From Deltaproteobacteria bacterium (GTDB taxonomy: Bacteria > Desulfobacterota > Desulfarculia > Desulfarculales > Desulfarculaceae), in contig JAJZPI010000019.1 of assembly GCA_021811275.1 (NCBI GenBank), positions 1-35,354 on the forward strand: 35,354 nt of DNA. The letters are read 5' to 3'. Each line of letters starts with the position of its first letter. Position 1 is the stretch's first letter. The translations under genes and the position numbers were made by a program. Positions 1 through 30,512 of this stretch are shown here, piece by piece. The notes under the pieces are model-generated. The model saw nothing but the letters and a program-made list of their open reading frames with translations, ran no database searches and had not been told where the DNA came from.

Positions 1-53
1 CCCGCATGCCGATTTGCGCTCAAACTACTCGTTTTAACGCTAGTTGGTATTAG
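1..53 (+). repeat. 53-bp direct repeat, copy 1
   Basis: This segment matches 1378-1430 in the same orientation. The first 34 bases (from CCCGCATGCC through ACTACTCGTTT) are identical, and there are about six mismatches in the last 19. Each copy lies 60-80 bp upstream of a gene for an exported hydrolase. The window begins inside or at the edge of this element, so its true left end is unknown. Confidence 0.85.
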
Positions 54-115
54 AGCACGCGCCTGAACGAGGTCTGCGGTTCCACCTGAACATCACAAGC
101 GGGAAAGGGGATAAG

Positions 116-919
116 ATGAGACGCATTTTGCTCGTCTGTTCGTCTGCGGCGTTGATGTTGGCGATCATGTCTTGTGGCCCATCAATAACATATGCCGATG
201 CAGGCAAAGCCGAGGACGGCGCGATTATCATTTCCAAGGAAATGGGCGCCAAATCAATGTTGAACTACCCAAGCGTCATAGCCGTAAAAGACAACACCGT
301 ATTTTTAGCGGATGGAACGTCCTTGCCTTACGATGACAACCTCCAGAAAAGCTTCGATGACCAACTTGAACATGCTGACATAAAAGATCACTTCGCCCAG
401 ATATATCCTGCCTTTGCCCCTCTCACCGCACCGGCTTTCAATAATGATCCAGGCCGATTTCGCAATGATGAATTGCTTAAAAAACTTTATGGAGAGAGCA
501 GAAGCAAGGTTGAAGAAAACCTCGCAGAAGTAACTTGGCTACCAGCGAACGAAGGTAAAAGGCTTCTCTTCAATAAGAAGGAAAACGCCGCGAAGCAACT
601 TCAAAAAGTCTCCAATGAACTGGATAAGCTTCCCAGCGAATACATGAAGTACATAAAGAATATTGATGGCACATACCAATACCGGCCCATAGCGGGGACA
701 ACCCGGTTGAGTCCTCACAGCTACGGCATTGCAATTGACCTGGACAACAAATATACAAGTTATTGGTTGTGGGATAAGGAATATCGCTATAAAAGCGACA
801 TTCCTCAAAAGATCGTTGATATTTTCGAAAAATACGGTTTTGTCTGGGGCGGAAGATGGTATCACTACGACACCATGCACTTCGAATACCGGCCTGAAAT
901 GTTCGAACGAGTGCTTTAG
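116..919 (+). CDS. M15-family (VanY/Peptidase_M15_4-like) D-Ala-D-Ala carboxypeptidase or L-Ala-D-Glu peptidase, exported
   Basis: A 267-residue zinc peptidase predicted to trim peptidoglycan stem peptides outside the cytoplasmic membrane. The zinc-site signature SxHxxGxAxD appears as HSYGIAIDLD (His201, Asp208). A second motif near the C-terminus, DTMHFEY (His255, Glu257), matches the DxPHFE-type end of the M15_4 family. I chose the ATG at 116 because a GAAAGGGG ribosome site precedes it and the protein then begins with a clear signal peptide (MRRILLVCSS). IMSC at residues 17-20 could be a weak lipobox. The in-frame upstream ATG at 44 lies in the repeat region and gives no signal peptide. 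The gene is AT-rich (about 45% GC in a sampled line) while its neighbours are well over 60%, so I infer recent transfer. Its exact bond specificity cannot be read from sequence. Confidence 0.8.
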   Translation: MRRILLVCSSAALMLAIMSCGPSITYADAGKAEDGAIIISKEMGAKSMLNYPSVIAVKDNTVFLADGTSLPYDDNLQKSFDDQLEHADIKDHFAQIYPAFAPLTAPAFNNDPGRFRNDELLKKLYGESRSKVEENLAEVTWLPANEGKRLLFNKKENAAKQLQKVSNELDKLPSEYMKYIKNIDGTYQYRPIAGTTRLSPHSYGIAIDLDNKYTSYWLWDKEYRYKSDIPQKIVDIFEKYGFVWGGRWYHYDTMHFEYRPEMFERVL

Positions 920-1508: not shown

Positions 1509-2564
1509 ATGAAAACAAACCATCTTCGCCGCATCTTGCACAGCGCGCTACTTTTAGCATTCTTCATGCTCGTATCTATGCCACCCGCGCTGGCTTGCAC
1601 CCGCGCCGTCTATTACGGCAAGGAAGGCCAGACCGTCACCGGACGCACCATGGACTGGGTCGAGGACATGCAGTCCAACATCTGGATATTTCCGCGCGGC
1701 ATGGCCCGCGGCGGCGACATGGGTGAAAAAGCCCTGAAATGGACCAGCAAGTTCGGCAGCGTCATCGTATCTGGTTACGAGTCCGGCACCACCGACGGCA
1801 TGAACGAAAAGGGCCTGGCAGCCAACATGCTCTACCTCGCCGAGTCGGAATATCCCCCGGACGACGACCGGCCCACCCTCGTTACCGGAGCGGTTGCCCA
1901 GTACCTCCTCGACAACTTTGCGACCGTCGGGGAGGCCGTGGCGGCGATGCGCCAGGAAAGGTTCCGGGTGATCAGCGTACCGGCCCCCAATGGCAGCAAG
2001 GGCACCGTCCACTTCTCGATCTCTGACGCCTCGGGCGACTCGGCCATATTCGAGTATGTCAAAGGCGAACTGGTCATCCATCACGGCAGGCAGTACCAGG
2101 TCATGACCAACTCGCCGATCTACAGCGAGCAGCTGGCGCTGAACGAATACTGGAGGCAGATCGGGGGCACCGTCATGTTGCCGGGCACCAACCGCGCGGC
2201 CGATCGCTTTGTCCGCGCCTCGTTCTACATCAATGCCACCGTCCAGTCCGCCAATCCGCGCGAGGCCGCCGCCGCCGTTTTCAGCGTCATGCGCAACGCC
2301 AGCGTGCCCCGCGGCATCAGCACGCCTACCCAGCCCAACATTTCCTCCACCATCTGGCGTACGGTTGCGGACCAGAAGAACAAGGTTTACTACTTCGAGG
2401 ACACCGCGAGCCCGAGCCTGCTATGGGTGAAACTCAATCAGATCGATTTCAAGCGGGACTCGGGCGTCCGCAAGCTCGCCATACACGGCGACCCCGACCT
2501 GGGCGGCGACCAGACAGGCAATTTCAAGGAAGCCGAGGCCTTCAAGTTTCTGACTCCGAAATAG
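1509..2564 (+). CDS. Secreted choloylglycine hydrolase / penicillin V acylase-like Ntn hydrolase (linear amide C-N hydrolase)
   Basis: A 351-residue Ntn-family amidase predicted to act on linear amides (bile salts, penicillin V, N-acyl homoserine lactones or similar). A signal peptide of about 29 residues ends in PPALA, directly followed by Cys30. Cleavage would therefore expose the nucleophile as the N-terminal residue, as this family requires. Other family residues visible are Arg46 and Asp49 in GRTMDW, Asn in GLAANMLYL, Asn in VMTNSPIYSEQL and Arg in ADRFVRASFY. The length matches the family. The start has an AAGAGGATAATCC site just upstream. Base composition is close to the rest of the chromosome, unlike the preceding gene. 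The substrate is unknown. Periplasmic location is inferred from the signal peptide. Confidence 0.85.
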   Translation: MKTNHLRRILHSALLLAFFMLVSMPPALACTRAVYYGKEGQTVTGRTMDWVEDMQSNIWIFPRGMARGGDMGEKALKWTSKFGSVIVSGYESGTTDGMNEKGLAANMLYLAESEYPPDDDRPTLVTGAVAQYLLDNFATVGEAVAAMRQERFRVISVPAPNGSKGTVHFSISDASGDSAIFEYVKGELVIHHGRQYQVMTNSPIYSEQLALNEYWRQIGGTVMLPGTNRAADRFVRASFYINATVQSANPREAAAAVFSVMRNASVPRGISTPTQPNISSTIWRTVADQKNKVYYFEDTASPSLLWVKLNQIDFKRDSGVRKLAIHGDPDLGGDQTGNFKEAEAFKFLTPK

Positions 2565-2716: not shown

Positions 2717-4294
2717 ATGCCCAAGCCCGTACTCATCGCCGGCGCGGCCATGACTCCCTTCGGCCGGGCCACCAAGAAGCTCATGGACCTTCTGACCGGC
2801 GCGGCCGAGGCGGCGCTCAAGCAGGCCGGCCTGAGCGACGTGGACGCCATCTACCTGGGCGTGATGAACGCCGAGGAGTTCGTGGGCGAGGGCAACCTGG
2901 CCGTGGCGCTTACCGACCGCCTGGGGCTATCCGGCGCGGCGGGCTCGCGCATCGAGACCGCCAGCTCCACCGGGGCCGGCGCCCTCGAGAGCGCCTTCTA
3001 CGCCGTGGCCAGCGGCTACCTGGAAAACGTGCTGGTGGTGGCCGGAGAGAAGATGACCGGGCTCTCCACCTCGGTGACCACCCGCATCCTGGCCGAGGTC
3101 ATCGCGCCGGGGGAGCGGCGCTACGGGGCCTCCATGCCCTCCCTGGCCGCGCTTATCGCCCGGGCCTACGCCCGCCGCCACGGACTGACCGAGGACCAAC
3201 TGCGCGACGCCCTGGGCGCGGTGGCGGTCAAGAACCACGCCCGGGGCGCGCTCAATCCCCTGGCCCAGTTCCGCAAGGAGATCAGCCTGGCCGCCCACCA
3301 CCAGGCCAAGATGGTTTCCGACCCCCTGGGGCTCTTCGACTGCGCGCCCATCACCGACGGCGCGGCGGCGGTGGTCTTGAGCAACCGCCGGGGATCGGTG
3401 CGCCTGGCCGGCATGGGCCACGCCACCGACTCGGCGGCGGTCACCCGCCGGGGCAGCCTGGTGAGCTTCAACTCCACGCGCAAGGCGGCGGCCCAGGCCT
3501 ACGCCATGGCCCAGGTGCAGCCCAGCGAAATCGACTTCGCCGAGGTGCACGACGCCTTCACCATGTTCGAGATCATCGGCAGCGAGGACCTGGGCTTTTT
3601 CCCTCCCGGCCAGGGCTGGCGCGCCGCGGTCGAGGGCCGTACGGGCCCGGAGGGAACGCTGCCCATAAACCCCTCGGGCGGGCTCAAGGCGCGGGGGCAC
3701 CCGGTGGGGGCCTCGGGCCTGGCCCAGGTGGTGGAGGCCTACTGGCTCTTGACAGGCCAGGTGGATCCAAACCGCCGCCTGCCCCGGAATCCCGAGGTGG
3801 CGCTCACCCAGTCCATCGGAGGGCTTGGCAACAACAACCTGGTGACTGTGCTCACGCCGGCCGGGCGGCCCCTGCACCGGCCCGGCTGGCAGCCGGAGTA
3901 CGACCTGCCCCTGATCCCCGCCTCCCCGCCCCGGCCCGACCCTCCGCCCGGGGAAACCGTGGGCAGGCTGCTGGCCGCCACAGTTTTGCACGCCCCGCCC
4001 CAGGGCTTCGCCGCGCCCCTCAAGCTGGGCCTGGTCCGGGCCAGCGGGGGCTGGCAGACCCTGGTTCATCTGCTGGACGAAGGGCCGGCCGAGCCCGGCG
4101 ACTCCCTCCAGCTGACCATGGAAAACGGTCTCTACAAGGCGCGGGCCATCAGCGCCCTCAACCGGCCCTGGCAGGAGGCCCTCATGTCCTGGCGGCGTCT
4201 GCCCACCACCCTGCGCCTCTGGCGCCGCCGCGCCATGCGTCTGCGGGCTCGCGCCGCGCCGGACAAAACCGCAGGCGGGCCGCCTGAGGCTTAG
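2717..4294 (+). CDS. SCP2/thiolase-like protein fused to a C-terminal DUF35 OB-fold domain; Ser at the catalytic Cys position
   Basis: A 525-residue fusion. Residues 1-390 are a thiolase of the SCP2/archaeal acetyl-CoA acetyltransferase type, with EVHDAF (His278), NPSGGLKARGHP (His328) and SIGGLGNNN. Residues about 410-490 resemble a DUF35 OB-fold (GRLLAATVLHAPPQGF, then a GDSLQL turn) without the zinc ribbon. The nucleophile motif reads ETASSTGAGAL. Aligned without gaps to the thiolase at 12127-13281 (ETLCSSSSTGL), Ser83 (AGC) stands where that protein has Cys83. A one-base change separates AGC from TGC. Normal thiolysis or Claisen condensation is therefore doubtful. It could be a pseudo-enzyme, a scaffold or an altered acyl-transfer enzyme. 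The ATG is preceded by GAGGATTCG. The C-terminal 35 residues are Arg-rich. Confidence 0.85.
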   Translation: MPKPVLIAGAAMTPFGRATKKLMDLLTGAAEAALKQAGLSDVDAIYLGVMNAEEFVGEGNLAVALTDRLGLSGAAGSRIETASSTGAGALESAFYAVASGYLENVLVVAGEKMTGLSTSVTTRILAEVIAPGERRYGASMPSLAALIARAYARRHGLTEDQLRDALGAVAVKNHARGALNPLAQFRKEISLAAHHQAKMVSDPLGLFDCAPITDGAAAVVLSNRRGSVRLAGMGHATDSAAVTRRGSLVSFNSTRKAAAQAYAMAQVQPSEIDFAEVHDAFTMFEIIGSEDLGFFPPGQGWRAAVEGRTGPEGTLPINPSGGLKARGHPVGASGLAQVVEAYWLLTGQVDPNRRLPRNPEVALTQSIGGLGNNNLVTVLTPAGRPLHRPGWQPEYDLPLIPASPPRPDPPPGETVGRLLAATVLHAPPQGFAAPLKLGLVRASGGWQTLVHLLDEGPAEPGDSLQLTMENGLYKARAISALNRPWQEALMSWRRLPTTLRLWRRRAMRLRARAAPDKTAGGPPEA

Positions 4295-11685: not shown

Positions 11686-12123
11686 TCACGGGCGGTTGAA
11701 GACGTAGTTGATCTGGCCGCCCGGCAGCCGGTTAACCTCGGTCTTCATGGCCATGCCGATGGTCAGCTCCTCCAGGGGCACGTTGCCTATGCGGCCGAAT
11801 ACCTTGTAGTCGCCATAGTCGAGCACGGCGATGGCGTAGGGCAGGTCCTCGTTGAAGCCCACGGGGGCGTACATGAGCTGGCTGTAGGTGACGAGCTTGC
11901 CGGTGCCGGTCACCGGGAACCACTCCATGTCGCTCGTCAGGCACTGGTGGCAGTCGGCGCGGGGGGGGAAGAAGGCGAGCCCGCACTTCTTGCAGCGGGT
12001 GCCGGACACCTGGCCGGCCTCGAGCTTGTCGATGAAGTCGTTGACCTTGGTGACGGCGGTGAAGCTCACCGTGCCGAACTTCTTGAAGCGCAGGTCTTTT
12101 TCTTTCTTTTCCTTGCCAGCCAT
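11686..12123 (-). CDS. Zinc-ribbon OB-fold protein (DUF35 family), thiolase partner
   Basis: A 145-residue small partner of the adjacent thiolase. The zinc ribbon is Cys44/Cys47 (CKKC) and Cys58/Cys61 (CHQC). The OB-fold follows, with TGKLVTYSQLMYAPVGF and the late GDYKVFGRIG and EELTIGM turns typical of DUF35. In studied systems of this type (archaeal thiolase/HMG-CoA synthase/DUF35 and the BbsA-BbsB benzoylsuccinyl-CoA thiolase) the OB-fold protein binds the thiolase and helps hold the CoA substrate. It starts 3 bp after the thiolase stop, so the genes are cotranscribed and a complex is the natural inference. The N-terminus is Lys-rich. The pathway is not identifiable from this window. Confidence 0.88.
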   Translation of the reverse strand: MAGKEKKEKDLRFKKFGTVSFTAVTKVNDFIDKLEAGQVSGTRCKKCGLAFFPPRADCHQCLTSDMEWFPVTGTGKLVTYSQLMYAPVGFNEDLPYAIAVLDYGDYKVFGRIGNVPLEELTIGMAMKTEVNRLPGGQINYVFNRP

Positions 12124-16534: not shown

Positions 16535-18466
16535 CTAGGCGGAAGCCAGGCGGAAGGCTTCCTTGAGATAGGATTTGATGTCGCCCACCACGGCCAGGGC
16601 TTCCTTGAGGGTGCGCTTTTCCAGGTCGGAAAGGGTGCCAAGGTCTATGAAGTTGTTCGGCTCCAGGCCCTGCTCGTGCATGCTTTGCTGATGGACCAGG
16701 CGCAGGTGCATCTGTAAGTCATAGGCCTGGCTGGCGCGCAGGTAAAGCTGGCGGGAGATGTGGCCGCCCTCGCCCAGCAACTGGAAGCGTTCCATGGTGT
16801 TGGTCTCGCGAATGCCCGCGCGCAGGCTCATCAGGCGGGCGAAGTCCACGAAGGGAGTCAGGCCCTTGGTCTTGAGGTCGAACTTGCCGGCGTGGGGCTC
16901 CTGCTTCTCGGTGATGAAGTTGCGCAAAAAGCTCAAGGCCGGGGGCGTGGTCAGGGTGTCCTTGGCCAGCTGGCGGAAGAAGACCTCCTGGCCGGAAAGC
17001 GAGCGCATCAGGTGCTCGCGCAGGCGCTGGCCCATGCCCAGGTCGCCGAAGCCGGGTCTGAAGTCGAAGAAGATGGTGGCGTGCAGGACCTCGCTGACGT
17101 CGGGGGTCATGATCCACTTGTCGAAGATGCGGGCCCAGCTGGTGAAGGGCTGGCACCACCTGGGGTTGCTGGCCATGATCTCGCCCTTGCAGCGGGGGAA
17201 GCCGCAGCGCACCAGGTGCTCGATGGTCTGGTTGGCCAGGCGGGCGAAGTACTCCTGGGAGGCCTTGGCCTGCTCAGGGTCCGCAGGGTCGGCGTAGATC
17301 AAGCCGTTGTCCTGGTCGGTGCGGAAGGTCTGCTCCTTGCGCCCCTCGCTGCCCATGAGGATCCAGCAGAAGGGCGCCGGCGGGGGGCCCATCTCTTCGA
17401 TGAGCAAAGTGAGCACCCGCTCCAGGATGTAGTCGTTGATGAGCGTGATCATGCGGGTTATGAAGTTGGGCTTGGCGCCTTCGTAGATGAGAGACTTCAC
17501 CACCCGGGGGCTTTTCAGCGAAAGCTCGTAGAGGTTGTCGATCTTGTTCTGGGAGACGATCTCGCGGACCAGATAGAGCGGCGAGGTGCCCTGAATGACC
17601 ATCAGGTCGTGGGCGGCGAACACGCCCATGATTTCTCCGCTGCGCTCTACGGTCAGATGGTGCACTCGGCGCTTCATCATCTCCAGCATGGCGTCGAAGC
17701 AGCCCGTGTGGCTGGGCACCGAGATCACCGGCGAGGTCATGATGTTCATCACCGGGGCCTGGTTGTCCAGACCCTGGGCGACTACCTTGGTGCGCAGGTC
17801 GCGGTCGGTGACGATTCCCCTTATCTTGCCGGTGCGGTCGGTCACCAGCAGGCAGCCCACCCGGCGCTCGCTCATCAAGCGGGCGGCCTCCTGAATGGAC
17901 CTGTCGCCGGCGACGGTTTCCGGACGGCGGCGGATGGCGTCCCCCACCTGGGCGGTGAACAGGTAGAGCGAGCCCTCGTCGGTGACGGAGGGCCGGGGCC
18001 GGGAGATCTCGGCCAGGGCCTTGCCCACGTAACTTTCCGAAAGGAGCTTGAGGTAGTGCTGGGAAAAGCGGGCGTGGGCGCCCACCAACGCCAGGAAGTC
18101 CTCGCGGGCGATCTGGATGAAAAGCGTCTCCTCCACCGCGATCACGTCGAGGTTGGAGAGGCTGCCGCGCAGGATGCCCAGGGCTCCGATGGCCATGCCC
18201 GGGCCCCGGTAGTCGATGAGGTTTTCCTGGCCGTCATCGTCGCGGAAGAAGACCTTGACCCGGCCCCGGTGGACGAGCCCCAGGTGGCTGACTTGGCTGC
18301 GGCCGCGCTCCAGGACCTTGGCCCCGGCGGGGAGGAGCTTGAGGGTGCAGCGGGCGGCCAGCTGCTCCAGGCTGGGCTGGTCCAGATCGGCAAAGGGCGG
18401 CGTGGCCTTCAGAAAGGCGAGAATTTCCGCGGTGGAAAGGGCCGGGGAGGCTGGGTCCGGGGCCAT
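16535..18466 (-). CDS. cNMP-binding / CBS-pair / DUF294 nucleotidyltransferase protein, catalytically intact
   Basis: A 643-residue cytoplasmic signalling protein: cyclic-nucleotide-binding fold (about 10-125), two CBS domains (about 145-275), DUF294 nucleotidyltransferase domain and a C-terminal DUF294 helical domain. The nucleotidyltransferase signature GSEGRKEQ...TDQDN is complete (Asp384, Asp386), as in GlnD-type enzymes. I chose the ATG at 18466 because GAGGAG lies just upstream. The extended reading has only a low-complexity Arg/Gly leader. Such genes are often found beside acs and acetate-permease genes, and here it directly follows acs. I infer control of acetate metabolism, perhaps by nucleotidylating a partner in response to adenine nucleotides sensed by CBS. 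The target is unknown. Confidence 0.9.
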   Translation of the reverse strand: MAPDPASPALSTAEILAFLKATPPFADLDQPSLEQLAARCTLKLLPAGAKVLERGRSQVSHLGLVHRGRVKVFFRDDDGQENLIDYRGPGMAIGALGILRGSLSNLDVIAVEETLFIQIAREDFLALVGAHARFSQHYLKLLSESYVGKALAEISRPRPSVTDEGSLYLFTAQVGDAIRRRPETVAGDRSIQEAARLMSERRVGCLLVTDRTGKIRGIVTDRDLRTKVVAQGLDNQAPVMNIMTSPVISVPSHTGCFDAMLEMMKRRVHHLTVERSGEIMGVFAAHDLMVIQGTSPLYLVREIVSQNKIDNLYELSLKSPRVVKSLIYEGAKPNFITRMITLINDYILERVLTLLIEEMGPPPAPFCWILMGSEGRKEQTFRTDQDNGLIYADPADPEQAKASQEYFARLANQTIEHLVRCGFPRCKGEIMASNPRWCQPFTSWARIFDKWIMTPDVSEVLHATIFFDFRPGFGDLGMGQRLREHLMRSLSGQEVFFRQLAKDTLTTPPALSFLRNFITEKQEPHAGKFDLKTKGLTPFVDFARLMSLRAGIRETNTMERFQLLGEGGHISRQLYLRASQAYDLQMHLRLVHQQSMHEQGLEPNNFIDLGTLSDLEKRTLKEALAVVGDIKSYLKEAFRLASA

Positions 18467-18557
18467 GGTTTCTCCTCGGGCCGAGGCCGCGTTTGAGTTG
18501 CCGGGATCGTGCCGGAAGCCTTCGCCCCGGCGCCGCCGCCTGGCCCCGGCTCCTGCC

Positions 18558-18580
18558 AGCATATTCTACTATAAAGCCCG
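18558..18580 (-). promoter_or_regulatory. Possible promoter region for the downstream DUF294 gene
   Basis: An AT-rich island reading TATAGTAGAATATG on the minus strand sits in very GC-rich surroundings about 95 bp before the start at 18466. TATAGT or TAGAAT could be the -10, but no -35 at good spacing is clear. Confidence 0.3.
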
Positions 18581-21563: not shown

Positions 21564-23501
21564 TCAGGCCGCGTTCTGGGTACGGTAACGCTGCTCAAGG
21601 AAGGCCTGCAGCTCGCTGGTTACGGTGAAGCTGTCCTTGAGCATCTTGCGCTGGGCCGGGTTCAGGGAGGCGGGGTCCAAGTGGGCGTTCGGCTCGTGGC
21701 CGGCGCCCCGGGCTTCCAGATAGCGCGCCACCCTTAGCAGAACGATGAAGCTGTAGGCATCGGCCAGGTCGGCGGCGAAACGCTCCTGGAGTATGCCGCG
21801 CTTGGCCAGTTCGGCCAGGCGGCCCAGGGTGCTGGTGACGGTGAGCCCCTGTTCCAGGGCCAGCACCCGCACGGCGTTGATCAGGGGCGTAAGCCCGCTC
21901 ACCTTGAGGTCGAGCTGATCGCGGTATTCGCCGGATTTTTCGACCACGAACTCGCGCAAAAAGCCCAGGGGCGGACGGTTGTGGGGGCCCACCCGGGCCA
22001 GGCGGGCCAGGAAGTGGCGGTTGTCCTCGATGGCCTGGCTGACGTAGAGCCTCAAGGACTCGGCGAAGGCCATCTCCTCGTGCACGCCGCGCAGATCGAA
22101 GAGCGAGCCGGCGGCGGGTAGGGCGCACTGGCCGGCCTCCCTGATCATTTCGGAGAAGGCGTTCTGCCACTGGGCCTCGGACTGGCAGCAGGCCGGAGAG
22201 TTGGCCTGCAGGCCGTGCTCGCTCAAGGGGAAGCCGCAGGTGTGGAGCCTCTCCACCGCCCGCCCGGCCAAGTCCAGGAACCAGTCCTTGACCGCGCTGG
22301 CGCGTTCCGCCGGCACGTTCATGAATACCAGGCCGTTGTGCTGGGCGGTGCGCAGGGCCTGCTCGCACCGGCCGGCGCTGCCCAGGGCCAGCCAAGAATA
22401 GGGCACCGGGGCCCGTCCACGGCCCTGGTGCTCCATCTCCAGCTCGGTCAGCTCCAGGATCTTGAGCAGCAGGCGGTCGTTGAACTCGGTGGCCAGGTCG
22501 AGCATGTACTGCGCCGAGCCGCCCAGACGCAGGAGCATCTCCAGCACCGGGTCGAGGTTCTGGTGGATCAGCTCCAGCCCCTCGGCGCTGTTGATCTTGT
22601 CCAGGTCGCGCATCACCCCCACCGGGGCCGCGCCGGTGACCACGCGCACGTCGTGGTCGCTGAGCACGCCCACCATGCGTTCGCCCTCCACCACCACCAG
22701 GTGGTGGACGCGGTGGCGGATCATTTCCAGCATGGCCTCGAAGGCGAAGGCCTTGTTGTCGATGGTGCGGATGGGGCGGCTCATCACCTCGGCCACCGGC
22801 GCGCCCGGGTCCACCCCGGCGGCCAGCACCCGCACCCGCAGGTCGGTGTCGGTGACCACCCCCACCGGCACCCCGGTCTGCTCCACCACCACGATGGAGC
22901 CCACCCGCTGGTTGGTCATGTTGCGGGCGGCGGCGCGGATGGGGGTCTGGGGCAGGCAGGCCAGAACGCTGGTGGTCATCAGCTCCGAGACCTGGCTGCG
23001 CTTCAGGACCGCCTCCAGGCCCAGGGAGCCGCCGCCGGCCAGCAGGGTGAGCCCCTGGTCCGGGGTGCGGCGCACGGCTTGCAGGTTGCGGGCCAGGGAG
23101 AAGCTGAAGTGGCGGTGAAAGGCGGTGTGGCTGCTGTAGAGGTCCTTGAAGATGGCCGCCGGCAGCAGGAAGGCGATGATGTCCTCGCGGGCGGTGACGT
23201 CGAAAAGCGCCTGGCTGCCCTGCAGAAGGCTGACCGCGCCGAAGCAGTCGCCTTCGCCGCGCAGGTCGACCAGGATCTCTCCGCCCAGGTCGTCGGGCAG
23301 GGTCACCTTGACCGAGCCGGACTTGATGATGGCCAGGTCGGTGGCCGGGGGGCCGCCGGCGTGGTAGATGCGCTCGCCCCGGGGATAGAAGGCGATCTCC
23401 ATCCTGGACACCACGCGGGTGAGCTCTTCGTCGCTAAGGGTGTTAAAGGGCACCACCGTGCGCACGAAGTCCCGTATGCGCGGCAGTGGAAAATCGCTCA
23501 T
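21564..23501 (-). CDS. cNMP-binding / CBS-pair / DUF294 protein with degenerate nucleotidyltransferase site
   Basis: A 645-residue paralog of the protein at 16535-18466 with the same order: cyclic-nucleotide-binding fold (about 10-130), CBS pair (about 170-300), DUF294 nucleotidyltransferase and DUF294 C-terminal domains. The signature GSAGRCEQ is followed by TAQHN instead of TDQDN: Ala386 and His388 replace the two metal-binding aspartates kept in the paralog. It is probably catalytically dead and may sense or scaffold. The ATG at 23501 follows CAGAGG. It is first in the DUF294-exonuclease-acs run. The nucleotide it binds is not known; the CBS and cNMP folds suggest adenine nucleotides. Confidence 0.9.
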   Translation of the reverse strand: MSDFPLPRIRDFVRTVVPFNTLSDEELTRVVSRMEIAFYPRGERIYHAGGPPATDLAIIKSGSVKVTLPDDLGGEILVDLRGEGDCFGAVSLLQGSQALFDVTAREDIIAFLLPAAIFKDLYSSHTAFHRHFSFSLARNLQAVRRTPDQGLTLLAGGGSLGLEAVLKRSQVSELMTTSVLACLPQTPIRAAARNMTNQRVGSIVVVEQTGVPVGVVTDTDLRVRVLAAGVDPGAPVAEVMSRPIRTIDNKAFAFEAMLEMIRHRVHHLVVVEGERMVGVLSDHDVRVVTGAAPVGVMRDLDKINSAEGLELIHQNLDPVLEMLLRLGGSAQYMLDLATEFNDRLLLKILELTELEMEHQGRGRAPVPYSWLALGSAGRCEQALRTAQHNGLVFMNVPAERASAVKDWFLDLAGRAVERLHTCGFPLSEHGLQANSPACCQSEAQWQNAFSEMIREAGQCALPAAGSLFDLRGVHEEMAFAESLRLYVSQAIEDNRHFLARLARVGPHNRPPLGFLREFVVEKSGEYRDQLDLKVSGLTPLINAVRVLALEQGLTVTSTLGRLAELAKRGILQERFAADLADAYSFIVLLRVARYLEARGAGHEPNAHLDPASLNPAQRKMLKDSFTVTSELQAFLEQRYRTQNAA

Positions 23502-25422: not shown

Positions 25423-26457
25423 ATGAGCTTCATCTTTTCCCTAGTCGCGGTCACGGTACTCGTTTTGGTGCCCCTCGTGGGAGTGACGGTGGCTGACCTG
25501 CGCTGGCTGTTCGGGGTTGTAGTGCCCTACGCCGCGGTGGCGACCTTCCTCATCGGGGTCAGCTACCGGGTGCTCAAGTGGAGCAACTCCCCGGTGCCGT
25601 TCAGGATTCCCACCACCTGCGGCCAGGCCAAGGGCCTGCCCTGGATCAAAACGAACAAACTCGACAACCCCTGCTCCCTGCCGGCGGTGATCGGGCGCAT
25701 GTTCCTGGAGGTCTTCCTCTTCAGGTCCCTGTTCCGCAACACCCGCATGGAGTATCACCAGGGACCCAAGGTTCGCTACGGCTCTTCCAAGTGGCTGTGG
25801 CTCTTCGGCCTGCTCTTCCATTATTCCTTCCTGGTGGTGCTGATCCGCCACTTGCGCTTCTTCACCGAGCCCGTGCCCATGTGGGTGCAGATCGTCGAGC
25901 ACATCGACACCTTCTTCGAGATGGGTCTGCCCCTGCCCGGCCCGGACGGCCTCTACGTGGGCCTGCCGCTGCTGGCCCAGTCCGGCGTGATCCTCCTGGC
26001 CGCGGCCACCCTGCTCTTCCTGCGCCGGGTGGTGATCGCCCAGGTGCGCTACATCTCCATCGCCGGCGACTGGTTCCCGCTGCTGCTCATCATCTTCATC
26101 GCCAAGACCGGCATCATCATGCGCTACGTGCTGAAGGTCGACGTGGTGACGGTCAAGAAGCTGACCATGAGCCTGGTCGCCTTGAAACCCGAGCTGCCCG
26201 CCGACCCCATCAGCTTCATGTTCTACATCCACATCTTCCTGGTCAGCTTCCTCTTTGCCTACTTCCCCTTCAGCAAGCTGATGCACCTGGGCGGCGTGTG
26301 GCTTTCCCCCACCCGCAACCTGGTCAACAACAGCCGGGAGAAGCGGCACATCAACCCCTGGAACCCCGAAGTCAAGTTCCACACCTATGCGGAGTACGAA
26401 GACGACTTCCGGGAGCAGATGATCGAGGCTGGCATCCCCGTGGAGAAGGAAGCTTAA
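25423..26457 (+). CDS. dsrM: DsrM, membrane cytochrome b subunit of the DsrMKJOP complex
   Basis: A 344-residue NarI-like integral membrane protein that oxidises menaquinol and passes electrons to DsrK. Hydrophobic segments are seen at about 5-45, 125-142, 185-205, 218-235 and 265-290, separated by loops carrying conserved His (LFHYSFLVVLIRHLRFF) for heme b ligation. MTKKL-like and INPWNPEVKFHTYAEYEDDFR C-terminal features face the cytoplasm near DsrK. GAGGTAGGAG precedes the ATG. The stop and the dsrK start are separated by one base. Family assignment rests on sequence features plus the complete dsrMKJOP order. Confidence 0.95.
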   Translation: MSFIFSLVAVTVLVLVPLVGVTVADLRWLFGVVVPYAAVATFLIGVSYRVLKWSNSPVPFRIPTTCGQAKGLPWIKTNKLDNPCSLPAVIGRMFLEVFLFRSLFRNTRMEYHQGPKVRYGSSKWLWLFGLLFHYSFLVVLIRHLRFFTEPVPMWVQIVEHIDTFFEMGLPLPGPDGLYVGLPLLAQSGVILLAAATLLFLRRVVIAQVRYISIAGDWFPLLLIIFIAKTGIIMRYVLKVDVVTVKKLTMSLVALKPELPADPISFMFYIHIFLVSFLFAYFPFSKLMHLGGVWLSPTRNLVNNSREKRHINPWNPEVKFHTYAEYEDDFREQMIEAGIPVEKEA

Positions 26458-26458
26458 T

Positions 26459-28147
26459 ATGGCAACACAAACTCCCAAGCCTCAAGAGATAGCCAAAGGC
26501 TTAAGCCACCAGCCGCCCAGCGAAAACTGGATGGACACCAAGCCGGAGTTCCGTTCCGGCATGTACTGCCATCCGGTTAAGGTGGCCAGCCTGGAAGGCA
26601 TGGGCGGCGCCTTCGCCCGCGAGTGGAACCCCACCGAGGCCGACTGGAAGCTGCCCGCCGACTGGAAGGGCATCGTCAAGGACGGCCTCAAGGACCGTCT
26701 GCGGCGCTTTCGCTCCTTCCAGGTATTCATGGACATCTGCGTGCGCTGCGGGGCCTGCGCCGACAAGTGCCACTTCTTCATCGGCACCGGCGACCCCAAA
26801 AACATGCCGGTCCTGCGCGCCGAACTGATCCGCAGCATCTACCGCGGCGAGTTCAGGACCGCGGGCAAGATCCTGGGCAAGCTGGCCGGCGGGCGCAAGC
26901 TCACCGAGGAAGTCATCAAGGAGTGGTTCTACTACTTCTTCCAGTGCACCGAGTGCCGCCGCTGCTCGGTCTTCTGCCCCTACGGCATCGACACCGCCGA
27001 GATCACCATCATCGCCCGCGAGATCCTGAACCTGCTGGGCCTGCAGATCGACTGGATCGGCACCCCGGTCAACGCCTGCTACCACGTCGGCAACCACTTG
27101 GGGCTCAAGCCGCACACCTTCAAGGAGAACATCGAGTATCTCCTGGGCGATATCGAAGAGAACGTGGGCATCACCATCGAGCCCAGCTTCAACCGCAAGG
27201 GGGCGGAGATTCTCTTCGTGACCCCCTCGGGCGACGTCTTCGCCGACCCCGGCATTTTCACCTGCATGAGCTACCTGATCCTCTTCGAGTACCTGGGTCT
27301 GGACTACACCTGGTCCACCTACGCCTCGGAGGGCGGCAACTTCGGCTTCTTCACCAGCAACGAGACGATGAAGAGGCTCAACTACAAGATGTACGCCGAG
27401 TCCAAGCGCCTGGGGGTCAAGTGGATCCTGGGCGGCGAGTGCGGGCACATGTGGCGGGTGGTGCACCAGTACATGGACACCATGAACGGACCGGCCGACC
27501 ACTTGGAGGTTCCGCGCAGCCCCATCACCGGCACGGTGTTCGAGAACGCCAAGTCCACCAAGATGGTGCATGTCACCGAGTTCACCGCCGACCTGATCAA
27601 GAACGGCAAGCTCAATCTGGACAAGAGCCGCAACGATCACTACACCGTCACCTGGCACGACTCCTGTAACACCAGCCGCGGCTTCGGATTCTTGGAGGAA
27701 CCCCGCTACGTGCTCAGGAACGTGGTCAACAACTTCTATGAGATGCCCGACCAGACCATCCGCGAGCAGACCTTCTGCTGCGGCTCGGGCTCGGGCCTGA
27801 ACGCCGGCGAGAACCTGGAACAGCGCTTCCGCGGCGGTCTGCCCCGGGCCAACGCGGTGCAGTTCGTGCATGAGAAGCACGGCGTGAACATGCTGGCCAA
27901 CATCTGCGCCATCGACCGCGCCGCCTTGAAACCCCTGATGGACTACTGGGTGCCGGCCGTCAACGTCTGCGGTCTCTCCGAGCTGGTCGCCAACGCCCTG
28001 GTCATCCCCGGCGAGAAGGCCGCTCGCTCCACCAACCTGCGCGGCGAGGAGATCAACGACCTGCGCGAGGAAGCGGGCCTCGAGCCCATCGAGTGGCCCG
28101 AAGAAGATGAAGAGGGCGGCGAGGCCGGAGAGGAGGGTGAGGAGTAA
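26459..28147 (+). CDS. dsrK: DsrK, HdrD-like catalytic iron-sulfur subunit
   Basis: A 562-residue cytoplasmic protein of the DsrMKJOP complex, thought to reduce the DsrC trisulfide or disulfide. Two cubane-cluster motifs are visible: CVRCGACADKC (Cys94, 97, 100, 104) and CTECRRCSVFC (Cys163, 166, 169, 173). The heterodisulfide-reductase-type CCG region has ECGHMWR, HDSCN and CCGSGSG (Cys440-Cys441), expected to bind the special catalytic [4Fe-4S] centre. An acidic C-terminal tail (EEDEEGGEAGEEGEE) ends the protein. The ATG lies two bases after the dsrM stop codon and the gene overlaps dsrJ by one base. No DsrC or sulfite reductase genes are in the window. Confidence 0.97.
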   Translation: MATQTPKPQEIAKGLSHQPPSENWMDTKPEFRSGMYCHPVKVASLEGMGGAFAREWNPTEADWKLPADWKGIVKDGLKDRLRRFRSFQVFMDICVRCGACADKCHFFIGTGDPKNMPVLRAELIRSIYRGEFRTAGKILGKLAGGRKLTEEVIKEWFYYFFQCTECRRCSVFCPYGIDTAEITIIAREILNLLGLQIDWIGTPVNACYHVGNHLGLKPHTFKENIEYLLGDIEENVGITIEPSFNRKGAEILFVTPSGDVFADPGIFTCMSYLILFEYLGLDYTWSTYASEGGNFGFFTSNETMKRLNYKMYAESKRLGVKWILGGECGHMWRVVHQYMDTMNGPADHLEVPRSPITGTVFENAKSTKMVHVTEFTADLIKNGKLNLDKSRNDHYTVTWHDSCNTSRGFGFLEEPRYVLRNVVNNFYEMPDQTIREQTFCCGSGSGLNAGENLEQRFRGGLPRANAVQFVHEKHGVNMLANICAIDRAALKPLMDYWVPAVNVCGLSELVANALVIPGEKAARSTNLRGEEINDLREEAGLEPIEWPEEDEEGGEAGEEGEE

Positions 28148-28530
28148 TGAAAATCTACGACAAGCCCGTAATCGTCATCGGCGTCCTCATCTTCCTGGCT
28201 ATTTTCGCCTTCCCGCTGTGGACGGCCCTGGGCACCACGCCTCCCCAGCCCAAGGTGGAGCTGCCCAAGGACATGAAGGAGTGCGTGGCCCCCACCGAGT
28301 ACATGAAGTCCTCGCACATGCAGCTGTTGAATGAGTGGCGCGATTCGGTGGTGCGCGACGGCAACCGGGTGTGGGTCAGTCATACCGGCAAGCAGTACAA
28401 CATGAGCCTGACCAACGAGTGTCTGCGCTGCCACAACGAGAAGAGCAAGTTCTGCGACCAGTGCCACAACTACGTGGGCGTGGTGCCGTTCTGCTGGGAC
28501 TGCCACACCTACCCCAAGGAGGCCAAATAA
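28147..28530 (+). CDS. dsrJ: DsrJ, triheme cytochrome c subunit
   Basis: A 127-residue periplasmic cytochrome anchored by an N-terminal hydrophobic helix (residues 7-25). Three CxxCH heme-binding motifs: CLRCH (92-96), CDQCH (103-107) and CWDCH (116-120). Cys46 in KECVAPTEYM with the downstream HMQLLNEWRD corresponds to the conserved Cys that serves as an unusual heme ligand in characterised DsrJ. It therefore probably has the mixed His/Cys ligation of the family. The start ATG overlaps the dsrK stop (TAATG), and the stop overlaps the dsrO start by one base, a tightly coupled operon. Confidence 0.96.
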   Translation: MKIYDKPVIVIGVLIFLAIFAFPLWTALGTTPPQPKVELPKDMKECVAPTEYMKSSHMQLLNEWRDSVVRDGNRVWVSHTGKQYNMSLTNECLRCHNEKSKFCDQCHNYVGVVPFCWDCHTYPKEAK

Positions 28531-29312
28531 TGACCTTCAACAGGAGAGATTTTCTGAAGGTAGCCGGCCTCTCCGCCGCAGTGGGCCTGGGGGGCAACGC
28601 GGCCTTTGAGCTGATTTTCCCCGGCCAGGTGGACGCGGCCGAGGAGATGAAACAGTCCCCCACCGAACTGACGGCCAAGCGCTGGGGCATGGTGATCGAC
28701 GTTAAGAAGCTCACCCCCGGGCTGCGCAAGACCATTACCGACGCCTGCCACATCAACCACAACGTGCCGACCATCGAGCCGCCCAAGAACCTCAAGTGGA
28801 TATGGGAGGCGCCCTTCGAGCACGTCTTCACCGAGGTGGAGCAGGAGTATCTGGAGGAGGCCGTCAAGGAATCCCCCATGCTGGCCATGTGCAACCATTG
28901 CGACAATCCGCCCTGCGTGCGGGTCTGCCCCACCAAGGCCACCTTCAGGCGCGCCGACGGCATAGTCATGATGGACATGCACCGCTGCATAGGCTGCCGC
29001 TTCTGCATGGCCGCCTGCCCCTACGGCTCGCGGAGCTTCAACTTCTACGACCCCAGGAAATACCTGCCCGACCCGGTGCCAAACACCGCCTATCCCACTC
29101 GCACCAAGGGCGTGGTGGAGAAGTGCACCTTCTGCACCGAGCGTCTGGTCACCGGCCAGCTGCCCTACTGCGTGGAGGCGGCCCAGGGCGCCATGCTCTT
29201 CGGAGACATGAGCGACGCGGGCAGCGCGCCCAGGAAGGCCCTGCGCAGCCGCTTCAGCATCAGACGCAACCCCGGCCTGGGCACCCAGCCCCAGGTCTAC
29301 TACCTGGTCTAG
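28530..29312 (+). CDS. dsrO: DsrO, periplasmic iron-sulfur subunit
   Basis: A 260-residue ferredoxin-like electron-transfer protein. A Tat signal starts with NRRDFLKVAG (Arg5-Arg6) and ends near residue 33, so it is exported folded with clusters in place. Cluster-binding motifs: CNHCDNPPCVRVCP, CIGCRFCMAACP and CTFCTERLVTGQLPYC, matching the multi-[4Fe-4S] DsrO/HmeA pattern. The ATG at 28530 overlaps the dsrJ stop and GGAG lies just upstream. It should connect DsrJ with the quinone-reactive DsrP. No truncation is seen. Confidence 0.96.
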   Translation: MTFNRRDFLKVAGLSAAVGLGGNAAFELIFPGQVDAAEEMKQSPTELTAKRWGMVIDVKKLTPGLRKTITDACHINHNVPTIEPPKNLKWIWEAPFEHVFTEVEQEYLEEAVKESPMLAMCNHCDNPPCVRVCPTKATFRRADGIVMMDMHRCIGCRFCMAACPYGSRSFNFYDPRKYLPDPVPNTAYPTRTKGVVEKCTFCTERLVTGQLPYCVEAAQGAMLFGDMSDAGSAPRKALRSRFSIRRNPGLGTQPQVYYLV

Positions 29313-29351
29313 GCTTTAAGCGGGATCACCGCCACAAGAATTGAGGACGAA

Positions 29352-30512
29352 ATGCTTGAAAAAGCCTTAGAAGGACAACCGAGGTACTGGGGCTGGCTCA
29401 TATTCCTCCTGGCGCTCATTGGGGCCGCGGCCTTCGGCTACAGCTTCCAATACCGGGAGGGTCTGTCCATCACGGGCATGAGCCGCGACGTTTCCTGGGG
29501 ATTCTACATCGCCAACTTCACCTTCCTGGTCGGCGTGGCCGCCTCGGCGGTGATGCTGGTGCTGCCCTACTATCTGCACCACTACAAGACCTTCGGCCGC
29601 ATCACCATCCTGGGCGAGTTTTTGGCCATCGCCTCGGTGGTGATGTGCATCCTGTTCATCGTGGCCGACCTGGGCAAGCCGGCGCGCGTCAACAACGTGC
29701 TCTTGCATCCCACGCCCAACTCGATCCTGTTCTGGGACATGATCGTCTTGAACGGCTACCTGTTCCTGAACCTGATCATCGGTTGGACCACCCTGGCCGC
29801 CGAGCGCAAGGAGCTGCCCCCGCCCAAGTGGGTCAAGCCGCTCATCTACCTGTCCATCCCCTGGGCGGTTTCCATCCATACCGTGACGGCCTTCCTCTAC
29901 GCCGGCCTGCCCGGCCGCGGCTTCTGGCTCACCGCCATCCTGGCCCCGCGCTTCCTGGCCTCGGCCTTTGCCGCCGGCCCGGCCGTGCTGATCCTGCTCT
30001 CCTTCCTGGTGCGCGGGCTGACCAAGTTCGACGCCGGCAAGGAGGCCCGGGAGACCCTGGCCAAGATCGTATGCTACGCCATCATCATGCACCTGTTCTT
30101 CTTCTTCCTCGAGGTCTTCACCGTGGGCTACAGCATGATCCCCAGCCACCTTGCCCACCTGAAGTACCTCTACTTCGGCTACCACGGTGCGGGCGGTCTG
30201 GTGCCCTTCGTGTGGACGGCGCTCGTGGCCGGTTTCGCGGCCATCGTGCTGTTGATCGTGCCCCGCTTCCGCCAAAAGGAAGGGCTGTTGATCACCGGCT
30301 GCATCCTGGTCTTCGTATGCACCTGGATCGACAAGGGCATGGCCATGATCAGCGGCGGTTTCGTGCCCAACCCCCTGCACGAGGTCACCGAGTACGCCCC
30401 CACCAACCTGGAGCTCCTGATCACCTTCGGCGTCTACGGCGTGGGCGCCCTGGTGCTGACCATCCTCTACAAGGTGGCCGTCTCAATCAAGCAGCAGGAG
30501 GAGCTGCGCTAG
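29352..30512 (+). CDS. dsrP: DsrP, NrfD-family membrane subunit
   Basis: A 386-residue integral membrane protein of the NrfD/PsrC family, predicted to exchange electrons and protons between quinone and the periplasmic DsrO/DsrJ. About ten hydrophobic segments are evident (for example WGWLIFLLALIGAAAFGY near residue 13, and runs at about 52-72, 85-105 and 125-145). GAGGACGAA precedes the ATG at 29352, 39 bp after dsrO. It is the last gene of the operon, followed by a strong terminator. The complete M-K-J-O-P order is consistent with sulfite or sulfate respiration. Confidence 0.95.
   Translation: MLEKALEGQPRYWGWLIFLLALIGAAAFGYSFQYREGLSITGMSRDVSWGFYIANFTFLVGVAASAVMLVLPYYLHHYKTFGRITILGEFLAIASVVMCILFIVADLGKPARVNNVLLHPTPNSILFWDMIVLNGYLFLNLIIGWTTLAAERKELPPPKWVKPLIYLSIPWAVSIHTVTAFLYAGLPGRGFWLTAILAPRFLASAFAAGPAVLILLSFLVRGLTKFDAGKEARETLAKIVCYAIIMHLFFFFLEVFTVGYSMIPSHLAHLKYLYFGYHGAGGLVPFVWTALVAGFAAIVLLIVPRFRQKEGLLITGCILVFVCTWIDKGMAMISGGFVPNPLHEVTEYAPTNLELLITFGVYGVGALVLTILYKVAVSIKQQEELR

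What the first reader, a model, noticed from the sequence alone, without database searches (positions are those of the whole stretch)
2717..4294. Thiolase-OB-fold fusion with the nucleophilic Cys replaced by Ser
Gapless alignment with the nearby split thiolase places Ser83 (AGC) at the Cys83 position. The active-site histidines (278, 328) are kept. The DUF35 domain is fused at the C-terminus without a zinc ribbon. The same window has a normal two-gene thiolase/DUF35 pair, so the fusion may be a regulatory pseudo-enzyme or carry altered chemistry.
Basis: partly seen in the sequence, partly recalled or inferred. Interest (0 to 1): 0.55.

Follow-up and report, generated by a model that had tools for sequence, protein, structure and literature searches.

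The report
Serine-type thiolase-like protein with OB domain
A protein that looks like the fat-metabolism enzyme thiolase carries a serine where the enzyme's essential cysteine should be, and the same swap is kept in relatives across many bacteria and archaea, which points to an uncharacterised enzyme type and not to a one-off mutation.

Summary
The product of 2717-4294 (+), 525 residues, is a thiolase domain fused to a DUF35-type OB domain without zinc ribbon. Ser83 sits at the nucleophilic-cysteine position; His278 and His328 are kept.

Ser is not a lone mutation. In a 120-sequence tree the protein falls in a 75-row clade with Ser 67, Thr 5, Pro 2, Cys 1. The clade includes ST0096 of Sulfolobus tokodaii (PDB 4YZO), for which the papers searched describe no function. 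Basal members are separate thiolase and OB genes, most with a zinc ribbon, so fusion came later. His328 is kept in 73 of 73 Ser/Thr/Cys rows, against 5 of 13 cysteine-less thiolases of archaeal HMG-CoA-synthase operons. This favours an active Ser/Thr acyltransferase (compare DpsC) over a dead scaffold; no activity is shown. In one small phylum the gene follows recR in 9 of 9 genomes and in five leads into a plsX-fab cluster.

New variant of a known kind; function inferred only.

The parts
2717..4294 (+). Fusion gene: thiolase-like domain plus OB domain plus basic tail, 525 aa
2729..3856 (+). Thiolase-like domain, residues 5-380
   Evidence: Pfam and NCBIfam matches; structural matches 6esq_A, 7yvy_A, 4yzo_A
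2963..2965 (+). Ser83 codon AGC at the nucleophilic-Cys position
3341..3343 (+). Cys209, the only cysteine; shared with Cys-type relatives
3548..3556 (+). His278-Asp279-Ala280 (HDAF); Ala replaces the second catalytic Cys of HDCF
   Evidence: role of that Cys from PMC12329534 passages
3698..3700 (+). His328 of GHPVG
3857..3952 (+). Linker, residues 381-412, where two-gene relatives carry a zinc ribbon in the partner protein
   Evidence: alignment A3
3953..4147 (+). OB domain, residues 413-477
4148..4291 (+). Basic C-terminal tail, residues 478-525, net charge +8, two predicted helices
12127..13281 (-). Comparator: split Cys-type thiolase (Cys83, HDCF)
11686..12123 (-). Comparator: separate DUF35 protein with zinc ribbon plus OB

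Best explanation
A catalytically active thiolase-fold protein that works as a Ser/Thr-type acyltransferase on acyl thioesters. The thiolase domain, helped by the fused OB domain, binds an acyl-CoA (or acyl-carrier protein). Ser83, activated by His328, takes the acyl group as an ester, and the acyl passes to an acceptor (carrier protein, lipid, small molecule) or to water. With both catalytic cysteines gone, C-C bond making or breaking as in thiolase is unlikely. The cationic tail may dock an acidic partner such as ACP or a membrane. Shown here: Ser/Thr conservation, kept histidines, loss of both catalytic cysteines, fusion history, tail charge, gene context in one phylum. Inferred: activity, acyl-Ser, acceptor, role of the OB domain and of the tail.
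For: Ser 67 and Thr 5 of 75 rows of the clade; serine written TCN in 42 and AGY in 11 of the 59 rows whose codon was read; His328 in 73 of 73 and His278 in 72 of 73 Ser/Thr/Cys rows, against His328 in 5 of 13 cysteine-less thiolases of HMGCS operons; catalytic loops hold 18 of 56 invariant positions while being 49 of 380 sites; clade-specific residues next to catalytic motifs; precedent: DpsC, thiolase fold with Ser118-His297-Asp302, self-acylates and passes acyl groups to ACP (PMC12664062, passages); gene beside yceD-rpmF-plsX-fab genes in one phylum; basic tail.
Against: Nothing was assayed and the Ser-His distance could not be measured. Cys-to-Ser changes abolish activity in PhlC-type acyltransferases (PMC6392133 and PMC12955522, passages). 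Two sister sequences with Pro at the position keep both histidines, so kept histidines do not prove a Ser nucleophile. One fusion has Cys (L132). Six of 31 Cys-type rows, and 7yvy, also have Ala in the HDAF motif, so that Ala does not by itself exclude C-C chemistry. The fab context is confined to one phylum, and the gene is absent from most sampled genomes of the window's phylum (18 of 297 at E <= 1e-90). Counts are not corrected for kinship.
Confidence: 0.45

Rival explanations
1. A non-catalytic scaffold or acyl-CoA binder: the fold is kept to bind CoA thioesters or a partner enzyme, and Ser83 is a non-nucleophilic leftover.
For: Cysteine-less thiolases do occur as subunits of archaeal HMGCS operons (13 of 13 with HMGCS upstream and DUF35 downstream); two sister sequences have Pro; MsTLP1 has Gly at the position, a C-terminal beta-barrel and no thiolase catalytic residues (PMC3406046, passages); C88S of PhlC keeps fold but not activity.
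Against: His328 kept in 73 of 73 rows and Ser/Thr in 72 of 73, unlike the HMGCS-operon set; no HMGCS gene seen beside the Ser-clade loci inspected.
Confidence: 0.28
2. Non-covalent C-C chemistry (retro-aldol, decarboxylation or similar), as in Ltp2/Sal, with Ser83 as a hydrogen-bond or oxyanion-hole residue.
For: Thiolase-fold aldolases with DUF35 partners exist and lack the nucleophile (Sal has Gly there; PMC12329534, passages); the OB domain is closest to ChsH2 of Ltp2.
Against: The YDHF/YDCY motifs that carry the aldolase residues are HDAF here; no steroid-type or catabolic neighbours seen in the window.
Confidence: 0.17
3. A thiolase that still does Claisen or thiolytic chemistry with Ser in place of Cys.
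For: Best family score is still the thiolase subfamily PRK06064 (below its cut-off); one member has Cys (L132); some Cys-type relatives also have HDAF.
Against: Both catalytic cysteines absent; published Cys-to-Ser changes in the related PhlC abolish acyl transfer.
Confidence: 0.07
4. A lone mutation or sequencing error.
For: None found.
Against: Ser in 14 of 14 intact sequences of the family and in 50 of 51 rows of the fusion clade.
Confidence: 0.01

Closest known systems
ST0096 of Sulfolobus tokodaii (PDB 4YZO, thiolase-like protein)
   Same: Ser at the nucleophile position, same clade at 100/96, Z 54.0, 36% identity; a zinc-ribbon OB gene follows directly
   Different: Not fused; HDMAT in place of HDAFT; partner keeps the zinc ribbon; no function found in the papers searched
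Archaeal HMGCS-thiolase-DUF35 complex (6ESQ/6ET9)
   Same: Closest fold of the thiolase part (Z 60.9) and DUF35 partner domain
   Different: Cys nucleophile and HDCF; three genes including HMGCS; zinc ribbon kept
DpsC (priming ketosynthase of daunorubicin synthesis)
   Same: Thiolase fold with Ser as nucleophile, His in reach (PMC12664062, passages)
   Different: KAS III type, no OB domain; homology to our clade at this level not tested
PhlC of PhlABC and related acyltransferases
   Same: Thiolase-like subunit with DUF35 partner doing acyl transfer (PMC6392133, passages); Z 54-55
   Different: Cys88 nucleophile; C88S inactive; multi-subunit
Ltp2/Sal steroid aldolases with DUF35 partner
   Same: Thiolase fold, changed active site, OB partner
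   Different: YDHF/YDCY motifs; zinc-ribbon DUF35 on a separate or MaoC-fused chain
MsTLP1 (thiolase-like protein type 1, Mycobacterium smegmatis)
   Same: Nucleophile Cys lost, extra C-terminal beta-barrel on one chain (PMC3406046, passages)
   Different: Gly at the position and no thiolase catalytic residue kept; relation to our clade not tested

Membership tests
Thiolase (SCP2-type or biosynthetic) | Thiolase fold | tested here: met
   Z 41-61 to thiolases, AF2 pLDDT 94.8
Thiolase (SCP2-type or biosynthetic) | Nucleophilic Cys | tested here: not met
   Ser83; Ser in 50 of 51 rows of the fusion clade
Thiolase (SCP2-type or biosynthetic) | Second catalytic Cys (HDCF) | tested here: not met
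   Ala280 in 51 of 51 rows; note Ala also in 6 of 31 Cys-type rows
Thiolase (SCP2-type or biosynthetic) | GHP histidine | tested here: met
   His328 in 51 of 51 rows
Thiolase-DUF35 complexes | OB domain of DUF35 type | tested here: met
Thiolase-DUF35 complexes | Zinc ribbon on the DUF35 part | tested here: not met
   No zf-ChsH2 in the window protein and no Cys outside C209; present in two-gene relatives
Thiolase-DUF35 complexes | HMGCS or PhlA-like gene alongside | tested here: not met
   None in the window gene list beside the fusion; a partner encoded elsewhere was not sought
ST0096-type Ser thiolase-like clade | Ser/Thr at the nucleophile position and tree placement | tested here: met
Ltp2/Sal aldolases | YDHF or YDCY motif | tested here: not met
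   HDAF; motif from PMC12329534 passages
TLP1 thiolase-like proteins | Sequence kinship to MsTLP1 and its C-terminal barrel | tested here: inconclusive
   MsTLP1 was not recognised among the 60 listed of 133 PDB matches; not compared directly
DpsC-like Ser ketosynthases | Ser-His-Asp geometry and self-acylation | not testable with these tools
   No model coordinates and no assay

The most novel reading that the evidence does not exclude
An ancient, uncharacterised class of Ser/Thr-nucleophile thiolase-fold acyltransferases that began as an archaeal-type thiolase plus zinc-ribbon OB pair and was later fused without the ribbon. In bacteria it passes acyl groups between CoA and carrier protein or membrane lipid and so links acyl-CoA pools with fatty-acid and phospholipid synthesis.
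Probability: 0.22. Interest if true: 0.75.

Novelty: new variant of a known kind. Interest (0 to 1): 0.5.

Why it matters
Thiolases are defined by a cysteine nucleophile, and family models place these proteins among thiolases or acetyl-CoA acetyltransferases. A widely kept Ser/Thr version means a class of doubtful annotations and probably an unknown reaction. The family gives a ready test set: a solved structure (4YZO), two-gene and fused forms, natural Thr (L084, L095, L097, L154, L155) and Cys (L132) variants, and two named isolates that carry the fusion.

Tried and rejected
Relocated nucleophile: C209 is the only Cys, but Cys-type relatives have it too and Sulfolobus-type members lack it; rejected.

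Broken or split gene: 14 of 14 intact sequences of the family are full length. One MAG (G003; L018, L029, L073) has a broken copy; its pieces were read apart and left out of the counts. Also left out before counts: L003/L004 (a third thiolase-like protein of the own genome) and 29 duplicates; in the tree, 14 duplicate or truncated rows. The group I called 'fusion' is a clade of 51 rows; a recheck shows that L066 is cut by its contig end inside the OB domain and that L071 ends 40 residues after the thiolase part with no OB domain in any of the three forward frames after it, so 49 rows show the whole fusion. Excluding L071 leaves Ser 49, Cys 1.

Window neighbours: the upstream CBAH-family hydrolase and the downstream opposite-strand HD-domain gene give no pathway. 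Neighbours shared across the Ser clade: only within lineages. Sulfolobus-type loci show enoyl-CoA-hydratase-, CoA-transferase- or CoA-ligase-like neighbours in some cases, judged by eye, not consistent.

Link to the S. acidocaldarius beta-oxidation cluster (PMC6449355, passages): the genome G440, whose length I recall as that of this species, has the orthologue near 1.49 Mb, away from that cluster at 903-932 kb; no support.

Literature: ten searches listed no paper on a Ser-type thiolase-OB family; only open-licence PMC papers are held. ST0096 was found in one of them, as a structural neighbour (PMC6392133, passages). PMC2954200 (passages) already reports DUF35 homologues fused to thiolase-superfamily members, so the fusion as such is not new.

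Structure: fold matches cannot tell function; the Ser-His distance was not measured because model coordinates are not given.

Full report
What is there. Window 2717-4294 (+) encodes 525 residues with coding-type base composition. Pfam gives Thiolase_N and Thiolase_C_1 above cut-off, OB_ChsH2_C at 22.4 bits (cut-off 27.1) and no zinc ribbon. A model built from 58 sequences has mean pLDDT 94.8 and pTM 0.91. Its thiolase part is closest to 6esq_A (Z 60.9, rmsd 1.4, 376 aligned), 7yvy_A (Z 56.8, rmsd 1.4, 357) and, among others near Z 54, 4yzo_A (Z 54.0, rmsd 1.6, 351). The C-terminal domain folded alone (pLDDT 83.5, pTM 0.57) is closest to ChsH2(DUF35), 6ok1_B, with other OB folds close behind; 37 of 40 aligned C-terminal or partner domains match OB_ChsH2_C.

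Active site. Ser83 lies opposite Cys83 of the split thiolase. His278 and His328 are present. The second catalytic Cys of SCP2-type thiolases (HDCF) is Ala280; the role of that Cys is taken from PMC12329534 (passages). So both catalytic cysteines are gone and both histidines remain. Caution: Ala also stands there in 6 of 31 Cys-type rows. The only Cys, C209, is shared by 31 of 31 Cys-type rows and replaced in 12 of 12 Sulfolobus-type rows.

Is Ser fixed? In the window's family 14 of 14 intact sequences have Ser. A scan of genome contigs used two peptide patterns away from residue 83 and kept the best 80 of 382 relatives: Ser 57, Thr 3, Cys 10, Asp 4, Gly 4, Glu 1, Ala 1. With further searches, 120 distinct sequences were aligned and a quick tree built. 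The protein belongs to a 75-row clade (SH-aLRT 99): Ser 67, Thr 5, Pro 2, Cys 1. Inside it the fusion clade has 51 rows, Ser 50 and Cys 1 (L132, genome G328), which reads as a reversal; 49 of the 51 show the whole fusion, L066 is cut by a contig end, and L071 shows no OB domain. A slower tree of 98 rows joins ST0096 and 56 Ser/Thr rows at 100/96 and 46 fusion rows at 99/95. ST0096 is a long branch there, but its relatives give the same grouping. Some deeper joins are weak and several rows are long-branched.

Origin. Two-gene members (archaea, Methylomirabilota, Rokubacteria) branch below the fusions; a gene right after the thiolase encodes a zinc ribbon plus the same OB domain. An Elusimicrobia member (L078) has a separate small OB-like gene without a ribbon, so the ribbon may have gone at or before the fusion. 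The Ser came first, the fusion later.

Enzyme or scaffold? A built-in control exists: 13 archaeal thiolases, each with an HMG-CoA synthase gene directly upstream and a DUF35 gene directly downstream (13 of 13; three of the synthases checked against NCBIfam). There the Cys is Asp, Gly, Ser, Glu or Ala, and His328 survives in 5 of 13. In the 73 Ser/Thr/Cys rows of our clade His328 is kept in 73 and His278 in 72. Mean within-group identity is similar, 0.60 in the fusion clade and 0.61 in the HMGCS set. Serine is written with both codon families, TCN 42 and AGY 11 of 59 rows read. The catalytic loops hold 18 of 56 invariant positions though they are 49 of 380 sites. Against this, two sister sequences have Pro and keep both histidines. 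None of these counts is corrected for kinship. Together they favour catalysis by Ser/Thr without proving it.

How it may work. DpsC shows that a thiolase fold with Ser-His-Asp can self-acylate and hand acyl groups to a carrier protein (PMC12664062, passages). Against this, Cys-to-Ser changes in PhlC-type acyltransferases abolish activity (PMC6392133, passages; PMC12955522, passages), so a Ser enzyme must be adapted; residues typical of the clade at 109-110, 140, 144, 280, 284 and 373-374 may be that adaptation (nearness to the active site inferred from motif positions). The tail after the OB domain is net positive in 48 of the 49 rows that have it (48 of 51 in all), mean +5.9 over the 51, while the thiolase domain averages -2.2.

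Context. In this window no pathway neighbour is evident. In one small phylum all 9 genomes held carry the gene; recR lies directly upstream in 9 of 9, yceD directly downstream in 6 of the 8 with sequence there, and five run on into plsX, fabH, fabK, fabD and fabG (L075 genes named). In the window's phylum 18 of 297 sampled genomes have it at E <= 1e-90. So it is missing from most relatives but present throughout one small lineage.

Verdict. Real, conserved, and not described in the papers that could be searched. It most likely works like a Ser-type acyltransferase (0.45); it is not filed as a thiolase, because the defining Cys was tested and not met.

Noticed in passing
L099, L101-L104, L107, L109-L112, L114, L117, L120: In 13 archaeal loci (Thermoplasmatota and Methanobacteriota labels) the thiolase between an HMG-CoA synthase gene and a DUF35 gene has lost its nucleophilic Cys (D, G, S, E or A), and 8 of 13 also lost the GHP histidine: probable pseudo-thiolase subunits of the HMGCS complex, which leaves open where acetoacetyl-CoA comes from.
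   Followed up: partly
L132 (genome G328, C8): A fusion with Cys at the nucleophile position inside the Ser clade, a natural revertant.
   Followed up: partly
L158, L160: Two Thermoproteota thiolase-like proteins with Pro at the nucleophile position and both histidines kept.
   Followed up: no
L003/L004 (own genome, contig C11): A third thiolase-like protein of the window's genome with Gly at the nucleophile position.
   Followed up: no
window 44-919: ORF of about 46% G+C in a 66% G+C window, Peptidase_M15_4 domain; possibly acquired.
   Followed up: partly
window 1509-2564: Choloylglycine-hydrolase-family (CBAH) protein upstream of the fusion on the same strand, 152 bp apart.
   Followed up: partly
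window 16535-18562 (-) and 21564-23501 (-): Two long proteins of similar make-up near an acetate-CoA ligase gene; the first has cNMP-binding, CBS and DUF294 domains, the second looks alike by eye.
   Followed up: partly
window 25423-30512: Gene run resembling dsrMKJOP of sulfate reducers (recalled, no family call for it); the small ORF 28147-28530 had no Pfam match at E <= 0.0001.
   Followed up: no
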